Of a DNA stretch of 36,797 bases, positions 910-29,748 are shown one piece after another. Numbering within the stretch: the stretch's first letter is position 1; the number at the start of each line of letters is the position of its first letter. Under the pieces are notes generated by a model that was not told the DNA's origin, made no database searches, and worked only from the letters and a program-made list of their open reading frames with translations. A program made the translations under genes and the position numbers. The stretch is taken from positions 1-36,797 of the IMG/VR virus record IMGVR_UViG_3300028800_000210, one strand, 5' to 3'. This stretch comes from a virus.

Positions 910-987
910 TTATTTTTTGGTATCAATTTTGCTGACATGTTTTTCCCAATCATCAAGTAATTTAATTTGTTTTTCCCATTCATCCAT
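910..987 (-). CDS. 25-residue microprotein between ERF and downstream gene
   Basis: Its start overlaps the stop of the 260-residue ERF gene as TAATG, and its stop overlaps another ATG as TAATG. Coupling on both sides supports translation. The product (MDEWEKQIKLLDDWEKH...) is a charged amphipathic helix with two DxWEK repeats. Function unknown. Confidence 0.4.
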   Translation of the reverse strand: MDEWEKQIKLLDDWEKHVSKIDTKK

Positions 988-1769
988 TACCAATCTTTCC
1001 TCGGCCTATCTCTAAGTAATATCTTCTGCTCTCTTATTCTGCGAATCTCTTGATGATATTTTGCTTTAGGCATATCGGCAAGTTGCGCTAAATCCAATCC
1101 CTTTAAGAGCGCTTTAGTCATTACTGGATAATCTTCTAATTCAGCATAAAGATCATCAAGTTGATCTTTGGTGATCTTCTCGCTTAATATTCCTTGATCT
1201 ACGGTAGCCTTAGTTTCATCGCCCGCAATAGCTTTTCTTGCCTGCGCGTTAAATATCGATTCGCTCGTATCAGCATCGTCATTATCAGCCTCATCATTAC
1301 AAGCCACAATGCCCAGCATAGCTTGTGCCACTTGTCGCTTAAGATACGCCAAACTTTCCCCATAGCGTTGATTATCACTTTTAGCTCCTGTATATCCCGG
1401 AATGATTAAACGATTCCTATAACTCAATTCTTGCCCGCTTGAATGACCTAAAATGGAATCAAGGTAAGTTGTACCATCAATATCAACCGGAGCTTGTATA
1501 AACGTCAGCCCTGCATTTGACAATGCATTGTTGGTAGCTCTTTGGATTGATTCAAGATCAGCATATACTTGCTTGTTGAAGTTGTTGGTTCTATTGAATC
1601 TGACAGTCTTGTATTCCAGCTTTGCTTTAGCTAAAGCTTCATATAATAAGTCTTTAGAGGGCTTCTTTTGCTCTCTTAACTCTTGCTTAAACTTGAAGAA
1701 TTCTTCATCTATTTTTGTGTATAGATCCTTGAATAATCCATGTAGCTCTGCGTATTCTATTTTGTCCAT
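987..1769 (-). CDS. ERF-type single-strand annealing protein, paralogue A
   Basis: A 260-residue protein of the ERF recombinase superfamily (single-strand annealing proteins used by phages for recombination-dependent replication and repair). An N-terminal extension of about 70 residues precedes the ERF core. Core features are YADLESIQRATNNALSNAGL, HSSGQELSYR, then YGESLAYLKRQVAQAMLGIV followed by an acidic NDEADNDDAD tail, matching the ERF pattern of hydrophobic strand, YLKRY-like helix and acidic stretch. The C-terminal 90 residues look helical. The ATG at 1769 follows AAGGATTAACT. It is immediately downstream of a second, shorter ERF gene, and both may form mixed rings. Confidence 0.85.
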   Translation of the reverse strand: MDKIEYAELHGLFKDLYTKIDEEFFKFKQELREQKKPSKDLLYEALAKAKLEYKTVRFNRTNNFNKQVYADLESIQRATNNALSNAGLTFIQAPVDIDGTTYLDSILGHSSGQELSYRNRLIIPGYTGAKSDNQRYGESLAYLKRQVAQAMLGIVACNDEADNDDADTSESIFNAQARKAIAGDETKATVDQGILSEKITKDQLDDLYAELEDYPVMTKALLKGLDLAQLADMPKAKYHQEIRRIREQKILLRDRPRKDW

Positions 1770-1771
1770 AG

Positions 1772-2401
1772 TTAATCCTTCTTCTCTTCAAGTCTATTAA
1801 GTACTTCTTGCATATTTCTCCAAGGCAACTGATCTAAAGATTCAATCTTGTAATGCGTGCATATCTTGGCTTCTTTAGCACTATCACCATTCAACTTAGC
1901 TTTAAGCATCCCCAATTGCTTGATTGATATGCAGTTTGAACCAGGAGTCGTGACATTTTGTCCCGGTTTGCCGGCAGTATGTGACGATCCGTCACGCACT
2001 GCTAGGGAATTACCATCATCATCTTCACCCTCAGAAATCGTTATACCAACCATGGCTGCATACACATATCTCTTTAAGTATGTCATGGTTTTACCAAAGC
2101 TTTGCACATCTGACGGCTTATCAAGCACCATTTTGACTCTAGAGCGAATGGAATCTCCCGAAGAATGTAAGAGTATTGTAACTAGATATGTACTATCTCC
2201 GTCCGTTTCTGGGTATTGGGTGATTGCTAAGCCATTCTTGGTCAATGCGGGCCTTGATGCATTAATTAAATCTGTAAGAGTTGCAAAGCTAGAACGGAAG
2301 TGGGGATTGTAGCCACCCTCTTGCGCTGAACCCATTTCTGCTTGAGCTGCGCATAATGCTTCGTTTAATGAGCCAGTTGCGGGCAATTTAAATGATTCCA
2401 T
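1772..2401 (-). CDS. ERF-type single-strand annealing protein, paralogue B
   Basis: A 209-residue ERF superfamily protein with the canonical layout. It begins near the N terminus with the ERF core (LNEALCAAQAEMGSAQEGG, NPHFRSSFATLTDLINA), then HSSGDSIRSRVKM, the helix FGKTMTYLKRYVYAAMVGI, and an acidic SEGEDDDGN segment. The C terminus carries a small helical domain (ISIKQLGMLKAKLNG...), as seen after many ERF cores. It lies 2 bases upstream of paralogue A. The two share motif order but differ strongly in sequence and N-terminal length, so this is an old duplication or separate acquisition. Role: ssDNA annealing in phage recombination and replication. Confidence 0.88.
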   Translation of the reverse strand: MESFKLPATGSLNEALCAAQAEMGSAQEGGYNPHFRSSFATLTDLINASRPALTKNGLAITQYPETDGDSTYLVTILLHSSGDSIRSRVKMVLDKPSDVQSFGKTMTYLKRYVYAAMVGITISEGEDDDGNSLAVRDGSSHTAGKPGQNVTTPGSNCISIKQLGMLKAKLNGDSAKEAKICTHYKIESLDQLPWRNMQEVLNRLEEKKD

Positions 2402-5208: not shown

Positions 5209-5829
5209 ATGCAAGCCTGGCGCAAAAGTCAATTAAATAACTACATAAGAATCAATTACAAAGCCTTTTTTATAAAAAAAGCTAAACAATCTGATAAATA
5301 CATAAAGCTATGCGATCTTTTCTTTGCATGGGATAACTTCCAAAATGAGTTTACTGCGTTTCAGGACTATATTGCATATCATTTGGATTGTACTCGCGAA
5401 TGGGCTTGTACATTAATAAACGAAGCCGTTCGAGATGGCATATTCTATTCCAAATATCAAGCTCATGAAGGCAATCTTCCCAATGTTTATGCGATTAATC
5501 CCTTCTTCCATCAAGAAGCAGTAAGAAGAGAACTTTCTTTCCTATTTGAAACATTTAGAAAACATCCAATTAGATATCTTTTCAATTTTCTACTATTAAC
5601 ACTAATTAAGTTTAATAAACCAGACTCTCGTAGTCAGCGCTACGAAGAAGCAAAATTTAGGGCCTTTGACAGTCAATTTGCGATGCGTAAATCCACGGCC
5701 CCGGAGAAAACCGCTCAATCGGGGGGAACTCCCCCTCAATCGCTTGTAAAAAATCCCTTAAACGGGATCGAGGCGAGCTACGGCGAGCTGAGCGAGCATT
5801 GTAAATGCGAGATGTGCCAAATTTTATAG
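5209..5829 (+). CDS. Winged-helix DNA-binding protein, candidate replication initiator
   Basis: 206 residues. The region at about residues 35-90 (FFAWDNFQNEFTAFQDYIAY, then TREWACTLINEAVRDGIFY) looks like a winged helix-turn-helix. A basic helix-rich segment follows (FRKHPIRYLFNFLLLTLIKF), then a polar tail ending in a CKCEMC cysteine cluster. First gene of the rightward operon, ahead of RusA and terminase genes; that position and the absence of any other replication protein suggest an O-like initiator or helicase loader role, but I see no diagnostic motif. Its 3' part has higher GC and contains repeats (5714-5797), reminiscent of lambdoid origins inside the initiator gene. A transcription regulator is the main alternative. 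Confidence 0.55.
   Translation: MQAWRKSQLNNYIRINYKAFFIKKAKQSDKYIKLCDLFFAWDNFQNEFTAFQDYIAYHLDCTREWACTLINEAVRDGIFYSKYQAHEGNLPNVYAINPFFHQEAVRRELSFLFETFRKHPIRYLFNFLLLTLIKFNKPDSRSQRYEEAKFRAFDSQFAMRKSTAPEKTAQSGGTPPQSLVKNPLNGIEASYGELSEHCKCEMCQIL
5714..5797. repeat. Repeats inside the 3' end of the initiator-like gene
   Basis: CTCAATC occurs twice (5714, 5735), flanking a G6-AACT-C5 dyad at 5721-5735. ATCCC...GGGAT forms a second dyad (5753-5768). GCGAGC is repeated at 5773, 5783 and 5792 (spacing 10 and 9). Local GC is higher than the surroundings. It could be an origin or just low-complexity coding sequence. Confidence 0.35.
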
Positions 5830-6466: not shown

Positions 6467-6938
6467 TAGCACGGCAAAAAAGAAACCCATCAAAACTGTG
6501 CATGAAGAATACTATTTGAATATGTTTACATTCAAACAAACACCAATATCGACAGATTATCTTTTACATTATGCCCTCGAGTGGGTGAACTGGGCTTTAA
6601 CGGATGACGATGCTTTGACCATGGAGGGATTCCATATCAAGAAGGGAGTTCAGTCTTTTACCGTATCAAGATGGTGTCAGCGAAGCCCAGAACTTAAACA
6701 AGCTCATGACCATGTAATGGAAATCATCGGAGATCGTCGAGAAAAGGGGGCCATTAATCGCAAATATGATTCTGGCATGATACGGACCACGATGCCTATG
6801 TATAAAGCTAAATGGCGAGAACTTGAAGAATGGCGTGCTCAGTTATCAGAAAAGATAGCCTCAGCTGGTGGGCTTAAAGTAGTAGAATTAGAGAAGTTTG
6901 CAGATTCAGATTTAGTGCCAAAGAAAGAGAAGAAATGA
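6447..6938 (+). CDS. Terminase small subunit-like protein
   Basis: About 163 residues with helical, DNA-binding character. TerS recognises phage DNA and loads it on TerL. Family-like features are the N-terminal basic stretch, ISTDYLLHYALEWVNWALTD, a possible helix-turn-helix around KKGVQSFTVSRWCQRSPEL, and a charged C-terminal helix, followed downstream by TerL. GGAG 7 bases before the ATG at 6447 favours that start over the ATG at 6441. It overlaps RusA. The assignment rests mainly on position, size and helical pattern. Confidence 0.6.
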   Translation: MKATSHNSTAKKKPIKTVHEEYYLNMFTFKQTPISTDYLLHYALEWVNWALTDDDALTMEGFHIKKGVQSFTVSRWCQRSPELKQAHDHVMEIIGDRREKGAINRKYDSGMIRTTMPMYKAKWRELEEWRAQLSEKIASAGGLKVVELEKFADSDLVPKKEKK

Positions 6939-12580: not shown

Positions 12581-12635
12581 GCCAGAAAGGTTCTGGCAGT
12601 CGATAGAGGTATAACCTTGTAGTTTAAAGACTACA
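12581..12635 (+). other. Two RNA hairpins between portal and head accessory genes
   Basis: GCCAGAA-AGG-TTCTGGC (12581-12597) and GTAGT...ACTAC (12619-12634) lack a T-tract, so they look like mRNA processing or stabilising structures rather than terminators. Confidence 0.35.
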
Positions 12636-12654
12636 GTTTCGAAGGAGCCAAACA

Positions 12655-28294: not shown

Positions 28295-28336
28295 GCAGAG
28301 ATATGTTATTTATTAGCATATCTCTGCAATGCTTTT
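28295..28336 (+). terminator. Late-operon terminator, partly inside a convergent gene
   Basis: GCAGAGATATG (28295-28305) pairs perfectly with CATATCTCTGC (28317-28327), then AATGCTTTTATT. It overlaps the 3' end of the leftward 44-residue gene, so it may serve both directions. Confidence 0.7.
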
Positions 28337-28440
28337 ATTCCCCAATAGGGCAAACAAAGTACCGCATAAACATATCTGAAATATAGATATAGAAAAGTTA
28401 TCGGAAAAAAAATAATTGCTAATATTGTTAGCTTGTTCAT
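28306..28440 (-). CDS. 44-residue membrane protein
   Basis: GGAGGTTTT precedes the ATG at 28440. Hydrophobic residues 3-30 (KLTILAIIFFPITFLYLYF) make one long membrane helix; the tail is short and basic. The stop lies inside the terminator stem. Last gene of the leftward island. Function unknown. Confidence 0.5.
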   Translation of the reverse strand: MNKLTILAIIFFPITFLYLYFRYVYAVLCLPYWGIKALQRYANK

Positions 28441-28513: not shown

Positions 28514-28777
28514 TTATTCACCTTTATATTCTTTTCTAAGAATATCTGCCCAAATCAATTTCTTTTCTAATGATCTTTTTTCTTGATCATCTGGATCTCC
28601 AAGTTCTTCACATTCGCAGTCGTTAATGAAATCATCAGGTCCGCTCGGTTGTCCATATCGGCACCCATTATTTGAATGTTCTTGATATTCATCCAATGTA
28701 TCCTGTCCTGTGAGAGGATTTTTTGCAATCCATTGCAAGATCGCATCTCTTGTTTCTTTGGTCATAGCCCTTTTCAT
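28514..28777 (-). CDS. 87-residue acidic protein of the leftward island
   Basis: MKRAMTKETRDAILQWIAKN begins a helical, acidic protein with a Cys-containing centre (NNGCRYG...NDCECEELGD) and a charged C terminus. The ATG at 28777 has AAAAAGGG upstream; the ATG at 28798 is the alternative. It lies just downstream of the iteron array. No family recognised. Confidence 0.55.
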   Translation of the reverse strand: MKRAMTKETRDAILQWIAKNPLTGQDTLDEYQEHSNNGCRYGQPSGPDDFINDCECEELGDPDDQEKRSLEKKLIWADILRKEYKGE

Positions 28778-28817
28778 ATTATTTTCCCTTTTTATCATCT
28801 ACAAGTTATTAAATAGT

Positions 28818-28974
28818 TTGCGCAAAACATTGCGCGAAAGTTGCGCAAATGTTGCGCAATAGTTTTTTATTTCAATCCGATTTATGCAGCAGATGCTGCG
28901 TAATTAAATTGTGCAACAACGGTTGCAGTTTTTCGTAATCATTTCGTAAATGTTTCGCAATCATTTCGTAATCA
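28818..28974. repeat. Two iteron arrays flanking a small palindrome (candidate origin or operator)
   Basis: Array 1: TTGCGCAA or TTGCGCGA at 28818, 28830, 28841 and 28852, i.e. 11-12 bp apart. Array 2: four abutting 11-mers at 28931, 28942, 28953 and 28964 (TTTCGTAATCA, TTTCGTAAATG, TTTCGCAATCA, TTTCGTAATCA). Between them lies GCAGCAGATGCTGC and AT-rich sequence. The 173 bases 28799-28971 carry no gene. Repeats at one per helical turn suggest cooperative protein loading, as at replication origins or partition sites. Confidence 0.65.
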
Positions 28975-29403
28975 AATTAAATTCATATCTCTGAAATAAG
29001 GTTCACATTCGTCTCTGAATTCTTTTATTTTCATTAGACTTTCCAGCAAAGACAATTTCACTGCTTCATTTTCAAATCCAAATGTATAAATAAAATTAAT
29101 CAATAATGGCAGCAGGCTCCATTTATCCCAATTTCTATTGCAATTTCCAACATCAAAACTATAAGTTTCATAAAGGTGTTGAGGATTTTTTTCTTCAGTA
29201 AATTCAGCAACAATTATTTCACTAATTTTTCCTTGTTTGTTGGTATTAAATAAGAATCGAATATCTTTTTTATTGAGGATTTTTTTCTCGGTATATTTTG
29301 TTTCAACATGTATAACTTGAGAAACATTTCCTCCAACGGCGTTCATAAAGCATGTATAACAATATTGATCAAAGTCTCCATCGCATGTATGTTTTCCTGT
29401 CAT
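28972..29403 (-). CDS. 143-residue hypothetical with N-terminal Cys cluster
   Basis: Starts MTGKHTCDGDFDQYCYTCFM, three Cys plus His within 18 residues, possibly a zinc site. The middle is alpha/beta (DIRFLFNTNKQGKISEIIVA), the C terminus helical. The ATG at 29403 follows AAAGGGAAATAAT. Its 3' end runs into the last iteron. No family recognised; host-takeover and regulatory roles are both open. Confidence 0.5.
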   Translation of the reverse strand: MTGKHTCDGDFDQYCYTCFMNAVGGNVSQVIHVETKYTEKKILNKKDIRFLFNTNKQGKISEIIVAEFTEEKNPQHLYETYSFDVGNCNRNWDKWSLLPLLINFIYTFGFENEAVKLSLLESLMKIKEFRDECEPYFRDMNLI

Positions 29404-29404
29404 A

Positions 29405-29581
29405 TTATTTCCCTTTCTTATCATCTTTTATTGCCTTTCCATATACTTTCACTTGCTGAGCCAACAATGCCGCTGTGACTAATTTGAACTGAATAGGCTT
29501 TGTTATCTTAGCCAACGTTATCTTTACTGGGTTTGAAAATGCTGGGGTTGCTAATAGTGTGAGTAATAATAGTTTTTTCAT
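29405..29581 (-). CDS. Small secreted protein of the leftward island
   Basis: 58 residues with a good signal peptide (MKKLLLLTLLATPAFS, cleavage after the Ser). The mature 42 residues are basic. Coupled to the RHH gene by ATGA overlap. AGGATT before the ATG at 29581. Like the 360 and 2912 products it would act in the envelope. Function unknown. Confidence 0.55.
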   Translation of the reverse strand: MKKLLLLTLLATPAFSNPVKITLAKITKPIQFKLVTAALLAQQVKVYGKAIKDDKKGK

Positions 29582-29748
29582 TTGAATCCTAATTCTATTT
29601 CTTCTCTGATCTTGTCCATAATTGCTTCTTCTATCCACCTCTTTATGCTCATATTCTTTTGGGATGCTCTTTTTTTCACCTCGTAATGAATATTAATATT
29701 CAGATCGACAATTAATCTCTTTATTTCATTTCCATGCTTATCTTTCAC
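29578..29748 (-). CDS. Ribbon-helix-helix repressor (Arc/CopG-like)
   Basis: 56 residues from a GTG at 29748 with AAAGGG upstream. The strand KRLIVDLNINIHYEVKKRAS, the turn NMSIKRW and the helix IEEAIMDKIREEIELG give a classic RHH fold. As the first gene behind its own promoter it probably represses it, contacting the repeated ATGTATA sequence there, and may control the island. It may also bind the neighbouring iterons, though this is only suggested by proximity. Confidence 0.7.
   Translation of the reverse strand: MKDKHGNEIKRLIVDLNINIHYEVKKRASQKNMSIKRWIEEAIMDKIREEIELGFK

What the first reader, a model, noticed from the sequence alone, without database searches (positions are those of the whole stretch)
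28799..28974. Two 11-bp iteron arrays around a palindrome in a leftward accessory island
Four TTGCGCAA-type palindromes and four abutting TTTCGTAATCA-type 11-mers, both about one helical turn apart, flank GCAGCAGATGCTGC. No gene covers 28799-28971. It is a strong candidate for a replication origin, partition site or repressor array, and the genome has no other obvious origin outside the 5209 gene.
Basis: partly seen in the sequence, partly recalled or inferred. Interest (0 to 1): 0.7.

Follow-up and report, generated by a model that had tools for sequence, protein, structure and literature searches.

The report
Phage operator array matching chlamydial Fic promoters
Two rows of short DNA repeats in a phage whose relatives sit in chlamydia-like bacteria are real, but look like landing sites for gene-regulating proteins rather than a replication origin; one row matches the repeats found in front of a bacterial regulator gene family.

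Summary
Window 28818-28859 carries four TTGCGCAA-type 8-mers (three exact, spacing 12/11/11), 28886-28899 a 6+2+6 palindrome, and 28931-28974 four abutting TTTCGTAATCA-type 11-mers; both clusters exceed dinucleotide shuffles. Origin and partition readings are not supported: no DnaA-box cluster, no skew turn, no ParM found, and a period-11 array in only 1 of 21 relatives' records fetched. The phage's portal has homologs in 9 of 232 Chlamydiota genomes (up to 64% identity). In that phylum, multi-copy TTGCGCAA arrays sit mostly upstream of winged-helix-like/Fic genes, and 24 of 30 such genes have short repeat arrays upstream against 1 of 42 other genes. The window's TTGCGCAA array ends 40 bp before gene A's ATG (15-48 bp for six Fic genes) and shares a 22-nt string with one of them (7 of 2000 nulls). 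I propose an HTH-Fic-type operator captured by the phage, controlling gene A or titrating a host regulator. The binder of the TTTCGTAATCA array is unknown. No binding was tested.

The parts
28818..28859 (.). Array 1: TTGCGCAA, TTGCGCGA, TTGCGCAA, TTGCGCAA (starts 28818, 28830, 28841, 28852); proposed operator array, ends 40 bp upstream of gene A's ATG
28886..28899 (.). Palindrome GCAGCA-GA-TGCTGC; counterpart GCAGCAGCTGCTGC at the same locus in relative G006
28931..28974 (.). Array 2: four abutting TTTCGTAATCA-type 11-mers; last three bases are gene B's stop codon; three copies at the same locus in G006
28514..28777 (-). Gene A, 87 aa orphan, directly downstream (leftward) of array 1; proposed regulated gene
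   Evidence: no hit (one search scanned the 94-aa form)
28972..29403 (-). Gene B, 143 aa orphan; array 2 begins at its stop codon
   Evidence: no hit (one search scanned the 150-aa form)
28306..28440 (-). 44-aa small membrane-like ORF at the end of the leftward island, GGAGG-type ribosome site (by eye)
29578..29745 (-). Ribbon-helix-helix (Arc/HicB-like) gene at the head of the leftward island; kept in G006 and G002
   Evidence: (76-aa form)
29405..29581 (-). Small signal-peptide-like ORF (MKKLLLLTLLATPAFS...; start read by eye inside ORF 29405-29638), counterpart in G006

Best explanation
The region is a regulatory region made of operator arrays, not an origin. Array 1 (TTGCGCAA x4) is most likely an operator array of the type that Chlamydiota keep in front of their HTH-Fic genes (an N-terminal segment that reads as a winged helix, plus a Fic domain). 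Several dimers of such a regulator would bind on one face of the helix just upstream of gene A's start and block, or switch, transcription of gene A and the small membrane-like ORF behind it; because I found no HTH-Fic gene in the phage loci searched, the regulator would be the host's. Array 2 (TTTCGTAATCA x4) and the palindrome would be sites for one or two other regulators of the same stretch. Shown: the arrays, their similarity to chlamydial HTH-Fic upstream arrays, the Chlamydiota link of the phage's portal. Inferred: binding, repression, host regulator, and any titration (decoy) effect.
For: Host link: portal homologs in 9 of 232 Chlamydiota genomes (best 64, 59, 55% identity) against 1 of 185 Gammaproteobacteria (25%). 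Motif link: in Chlamydiota, TTGCGCAA pairs occur in 31 of 232 genomes against 2 of 232 for the reversed control pattern; of the 30 loci returned, 7 have at least three exact copies, and 5 of those 7 lie upstream of HTH-Fic genes. HTH-Fic genes in general: 65 of 176 Chlamydiota genomes; of the 30 best loci, 24 have an 8-mer repeated three or more times in 200 bp upstream, against 9 of 508 random windows of the same loci and 1 of 42 upstreams of other chlamydial genes; close orthologs share the motif and distant ones have another. Geometry: array 1 ends 40 bp before gene A's ATG; the six TTGCGCAA-type HTH-Fic genes have 15-48 bp; 22 nt CTATTGCGCAACATTTGCGCAA are shared in the same orientation with L321, reached in 7 of 2000 nulls that keep the cores fixed. 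Flanks fit the HTH-Fic sites weakly (P about 0.02). Precedent: the Yersinia HTH-Fic protein CccR represses its own promoter by binding inverted repeats (PMC9755527, passages read).
Against: No binding or expression data. An 8-bp palindrome is easily reinvented: TTGCGCAA triplets also occur in viral contigs with no shown chlamydial link (L083-L086; two of them inside genes). The three Chlamydiota genomes with the closest portals (G083, G270, G137) show no TTGCGCAA pair and are not among the HTH-Fic matches printed, which sampled 176 genomes. 2 of the 7 multi-copy chlamydial loci have no HTH-Fic gene in the stretch fetched. Site spacing in the HTH-Fic arrays varies (10 to 23 bp) whereas the window's is 11-12. 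Array 2's motif is not enriched in Chlamydiota (11 of 232 genomes, fewer than the reversed control), so the explanation covers array 1 only. Relative G006 keeps array 2 and the palindrome but has no TTGCGCAA array.
Confidence: 0.45

Rival explanations
1. Operator arrays for the phage's own ribbon-helix-helix protein (29578-29745): Arc-like dimers bind tandem 11-bp sites and repress the end of their own operon.
For: RHH gene heads the same leftward island and matches Arc-like/HicB-like PHROGs (E 1.4e-4 and 2.2e-4); RHH proteins bind direct repeats, ParR of R1 needs two 11-bp repeats (PMC9426499, passages); 11-bp spacing fits one helical turn.
Against: No copy of either motif lies upstream of the RHH gene, where autoregulation would be expected; G002 keeps an RHH homolog (44% identity) without array, gene B or gene A; the 11-mer is identical in window and G006 although their RHH proteins are only 46% identical over 56 aa.
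Confidence: 0.25
2. Iteron-type replication origin of the phage, fired by an initiator such as the 5209-5829 protein.
For: 11-bp TTNCGNAA arrays do occur inside replication-initiator-like genes of other phages (e.g. L137, L138, L156, L162; identity judged by eye), and AAA_25 proteins neighbour some arrays (3 of 81 flanking proteins).
Against: Here the array lies 23 kb from the candidate initiator; no DnaA-box cluster, no skew turn (minimum at 6578), only mildly AT-rich; absent at this locus from most relatives; the 5209 gene shows no tandem array of its own.
Confidence: 0.08
3. parC-like partition site of a plasmid-like prophage.
For: Two arrays of 11-bp repeats resemble plasmid R1 parC (general knowledge), and an RHH gene is near.
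Against: No ParM or other partition NTPase turned up among the window proteins scanned; the arrays have different sequences and flank no parM promoter; array 1 absent in G006.
Confidence: 0.03
4. Tandem-repeat slippage product or 3'-end element without function; arrays that begin at stop codons are by-products.
For: In window, G006 and L004 an array of this motif family starts within about 2 bp of a stop codon; copy number and motif vary among close relatives.
Against: Cores TT-CG-AA are kept while spacers vary (TCA, ATG, TGA, CTA), unlike fresh slippage copies; the period is 11 only (6 hits at 11 and 0 at 8-10 and 12-16 for a loose core).
Confidence: 0.15

Closest known systems
CccR (Yersinia pseudotuberculosis), a Fic toxin with a C-terminal HTH that represses its own promoter
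   Same: Fic protein with HTH; binds inverted repeats near its own promoter (PMC9755527, passages read)
   Different: CccR uses one pair of 10-bp repeats 26 bp apart; the chlamydial genes have arrays of 3-7 short copies, and the HTH-like segment is N-terminal (read by eye); the window array has no Fic gene beside it
ParR/parC centromere of plasmid R1
   Same: 11-bp direct repeats, possible RHH binder
   Different: no ParM found, two unlike repeat families, repeat arrays not shared by most relatives
In-gene iteron-like arrays of phage initiator-like genes (L137, L138, L156, L162)
   Same: TTNCGNAA cores at an 11-bp period
   Different: those lie inside the initiator-like gene (function judged by eye); the window's arrays are intergenic in a late-region accessory island

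Membership tests
Chlamydial HTH-Fic operator array | multi-copy TTGCGCAA-type 8-mers upstream of a start codon | tested here: met
   four sites, nearest ends 40 bp before gene A's ATG; HTH-Fic genes 15-48 bp
Chlamydial HTH-Fic operator array | HTH-Fic gene directly downstream | tested here: not met
   gene A has no Fic domain; no HTH-Fic gene in the phage loci searched (E up to 1; that set included the window flank L001 but not the whole window)
Chlamydial HTH-Fic operator array | bound by an HTH-Fic protein | not testable with these tools
   needs EMSA or footprint
Iteron replication origin | initiator gene beside or around the iterons | tested here: not met
   neighbours are orphans, a signal-peptide-like ORF and an RHH gene
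Iteron replication origin | DnaA boxes, AT-rich unwinding stretch, skew turn | tested here: not met
   two DnaA-like matches in the window, at 28434 and 35818, none in the array; AT 65%; skew minimum at 6578
Iteron replication origin | retained at the same place in close relatives | tested here: not met
   array 2 at this locus in G006 only; none in G002
parC (type II partition) | ParM ATPase and ParR in one operon with the repeats | tested here: not met
   RHH present, no ParM match among the proteins scanned (not every ORF was scanned)
RHH (Arc-like) operator | same repeats at the RHH gene's own promoter | tested here: not met
   no further copies of either motif upstream of 29745

The most novel reading that the evidence does not exclude
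A tailed phage of chlamydia-like bacteria carries a captured operator array of a host HTH-Fic regulator, either to put its own gene A under host control or to soak up the regulator, and the chlamydial HTH-Fic proteins form a family whose multi-copy operators diversify quickly in sequence between orthologs.
Probability: 0.3. Interest if true: 0.75.

Novelty: new variant of a known kind. Interest (0 to 1): 0.5.

Why it matters
Regulators of obligate intracellular Chlamydiota are hard to study genetically. A family of HTH-Fic genes each preceded by its own short repeat array gives directly testable protein-operator pairs, and a phage carrying one of these arrays would be a natural probe of what the regulator does and of how phages interact with chlamydial gene control. 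The portal evidence also ties a family of tailed phages known here only from metagenomes to Chlamydiota.

Tried and rejected
Origin, partition and pure slippage readings: see rivals. Arrays in L034 and L035 first looked like the same 11-bp class but lie inside the variable hairpin of a conserved RNA-like element, so I do not count them as support. Collection scans of TTNCGNAA x3: 39 viral stretches at period 11, but 24 at period 10 and 7 at period 13, so period 11 alone is only modestly enriched there; many hits lie inside genes. Pfam on 81 of the 84 proteins flanking non-coding arrays (3 left out: L189:5481-6791, L209:10-252 and L210:2147-7981): SLFN_AlbA_2 in 4 and HATPase_c_4 in 5 of 81; no family dominates. 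Structures of genes A and B (mean pLDDT 50 and 60) were too poor to search. Genes A and B gave no relatives. TTTCGTAA pairs are not enriched in Chlamydiota. Paper searches: (Fic, helix-turn-helix, Chlamydiae, inverted repeats: 0 papers; Fic domain, autoregulat, promoter, chlamydia: 0), on phages of Chlamydiae (listings only; nothing on tailed phages of Chlamydiae seen in the listed titles); one search gave PMC9426499 (passages); one search gave PMC9755527 (passages); PMC4989314 and PMC8242063 passages only (no hit for 'fic' in either).

Full report
Observation. Array 1 has three exact TTGCGCAA and one TTGCGCGA in 28818-28859; array 2 has four abutting TTTCGTAATCA-type 11-mers in 28931-28974, ending on the stop codon of gene B; between them lies GCAGCAGATGCTGC. 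In 100 dinucleotide shuffles of the whole window no stretch reached the period-11 score of array 2 and no 45-bp stretch held more than two TTGCGCAA-like sites.

Setting. The window is an IMG/VR virus record of 36,797 bases with a P22-type portal, large terminase, two Erf genes and a RusA-type resolvase. The arrays lie in a short leftward island within the late region: RHH gene, signal-peptide-like ORF, gene B, arrays, gene A, 44-aa membrane-like ORF. Genes A and B found no relatives.

Relatives. 80 loci with related portals came from IMG/VR, the best 80 of 138. G006 (83% portal identity, 38 kb) has the same island start (RHH, signal-peptide-like ORF, a different gene B) and, directly after that gene's stop, three TTTCGTAATCA-type copies, then GCAGCAGCTGCTGC, then a 33-aa ORF; it has no TTGCGCAA array. 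G002 (82%) has the RHH gene and a small membrane-like ORF but no gene B and no array. L004 (83%) has a mixed array (TTGCGCAA, TTACGCAA, TTACGAAA, TTACGAAA) right after the stop codon of a gene just before the portal. One search scanned 40 stretches of 21 relatives' records (some of them fragments) for period-11 self-similarity outside ORFs and found one, in G006. A loose core regex over about 1.79 Mb gave 6 hits at period 11 (window twice, G006 twice through overlapping loci, L004, L034) and none at periods 8-10 or 12-16; L034 was later set aside, because it and L035 fall in another element.

Host. The portal has homologs in 9 of 232 genomes of the phylum of a titled Chlamydiae MAG (64, 59, 55% identity and lower) and in 1 of 185 Gammaproteobacteria at 25%. 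This ties the phage family to Chlamydiota; it does not name this phage's host.

Link to HTH-Fic genes. A scan of GTDB genomes for TTNCGNAA x3 led to a Chlamydiae contig where TTGCGCAA, TTGCGCAA, TTGCGTAA, TTGCGTAA, TTGCGCAA lie 36 bp before a gene that Pfam calls Fic; its N-terminus reads as a winged helix by eye only. Relatives of that gene occur in 65 of 176 Chlamydiota genomes. In the 30 best loci the upstream 200 bp hold an 8-mer repeated at least three times in 24 cases; the motif is TTGCGCAA in the closest five and others (TCGCGCAA, TTGCGCCA, TTGCGACA, TGACAAAA, ATCGTAAC) in more distant ones. Controls: 9 of 508 random windows and 1 of 42 upstreams of other chlamydial genes. Conversely TTGCGCAA pairs occur in 31 of 232 Chlamydiota genomes against 2 for the reversed pattern; of the 30 loci fetched, most single pairs lie inside genes, but of the seven with three or more exact copies five precede an HTH-Fic gene. 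The window's array 1 resembles these in core, in distance to the next ATG (40 bp against 15-48 bp) and in a shared 22-nt string with the same orientation (7 of 2000 nulls). The flank test is weaker (P about 0.02), and the null for the 22-nt string does not correct for my having noticed the match first.

Results against. The genomes with the closest portals show no TTGCGCAA pair. TTTCGTAA pairs are not enriched in Chlamydiota, so array 2 is unexplained. TTGCGCAA triplets occur in other viral contigs. No HTH-Fic gene was found in the phage loci searched.

Conclusion. The most economical reading is a regulatory region with two operator arrays and a dyad upstream of gene A. For array 1 the best-supported binder class is an HTH-Fic regulator of the host; for array 2 the binder is unknown (RHH protein or another winged-helix regulator). 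Binding, repression and any decoy effect are inference.

Noticed in passing
window 12596-12646 (+); relatives in alignment A3 (e.g. L004:3935-3987, L007:12705-12759): Conserved three-way-junction-like RNA element just upstream of the ribosome site of the gene following the portal. 33 sequences (I chose them from 44 non-redundant ones parsed from 70 loci): 85% of cells pair against 70% in shuffles, 89 double-sided changes against 32, and slid controls fall to 32-50%; no Rfam match. A model finds it in G006 and G002, but not in the nine Chlamydiota genomes tested (only 150 candidates scored each).
   Followed up: partly
L321-L350, upstream of HTH-Fic genes: Chlamydiota HTH-Fic genes carry multi-copy short operator-like arrays whose sequence differs between orthologs.
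   Followed up: partly
L311-L318: Portal genes related to this phage lie in Chlamydiota genomes: tailed prophages or phage contigs of chlamydia-like bacteria.
   Followed up: partly
L004:1340-1553: The portal gene of this relative appears to be interrupted by a group I intron-like stretch (by eye).
   Followed up: no
L164, L178, L196, L224 and L187: SLFN_AlbA_2/HATPase_c_4 genes (Pfam run on L196 and L187; the others by eye) have 11-bp TTNCGNAA arrays at or just behind their 3' ends.
   Followed up: partly
window 987-1769 and 1772-2401 (-): Two adjacent Erf-type single-strand annealing genes.
   Followed up: no
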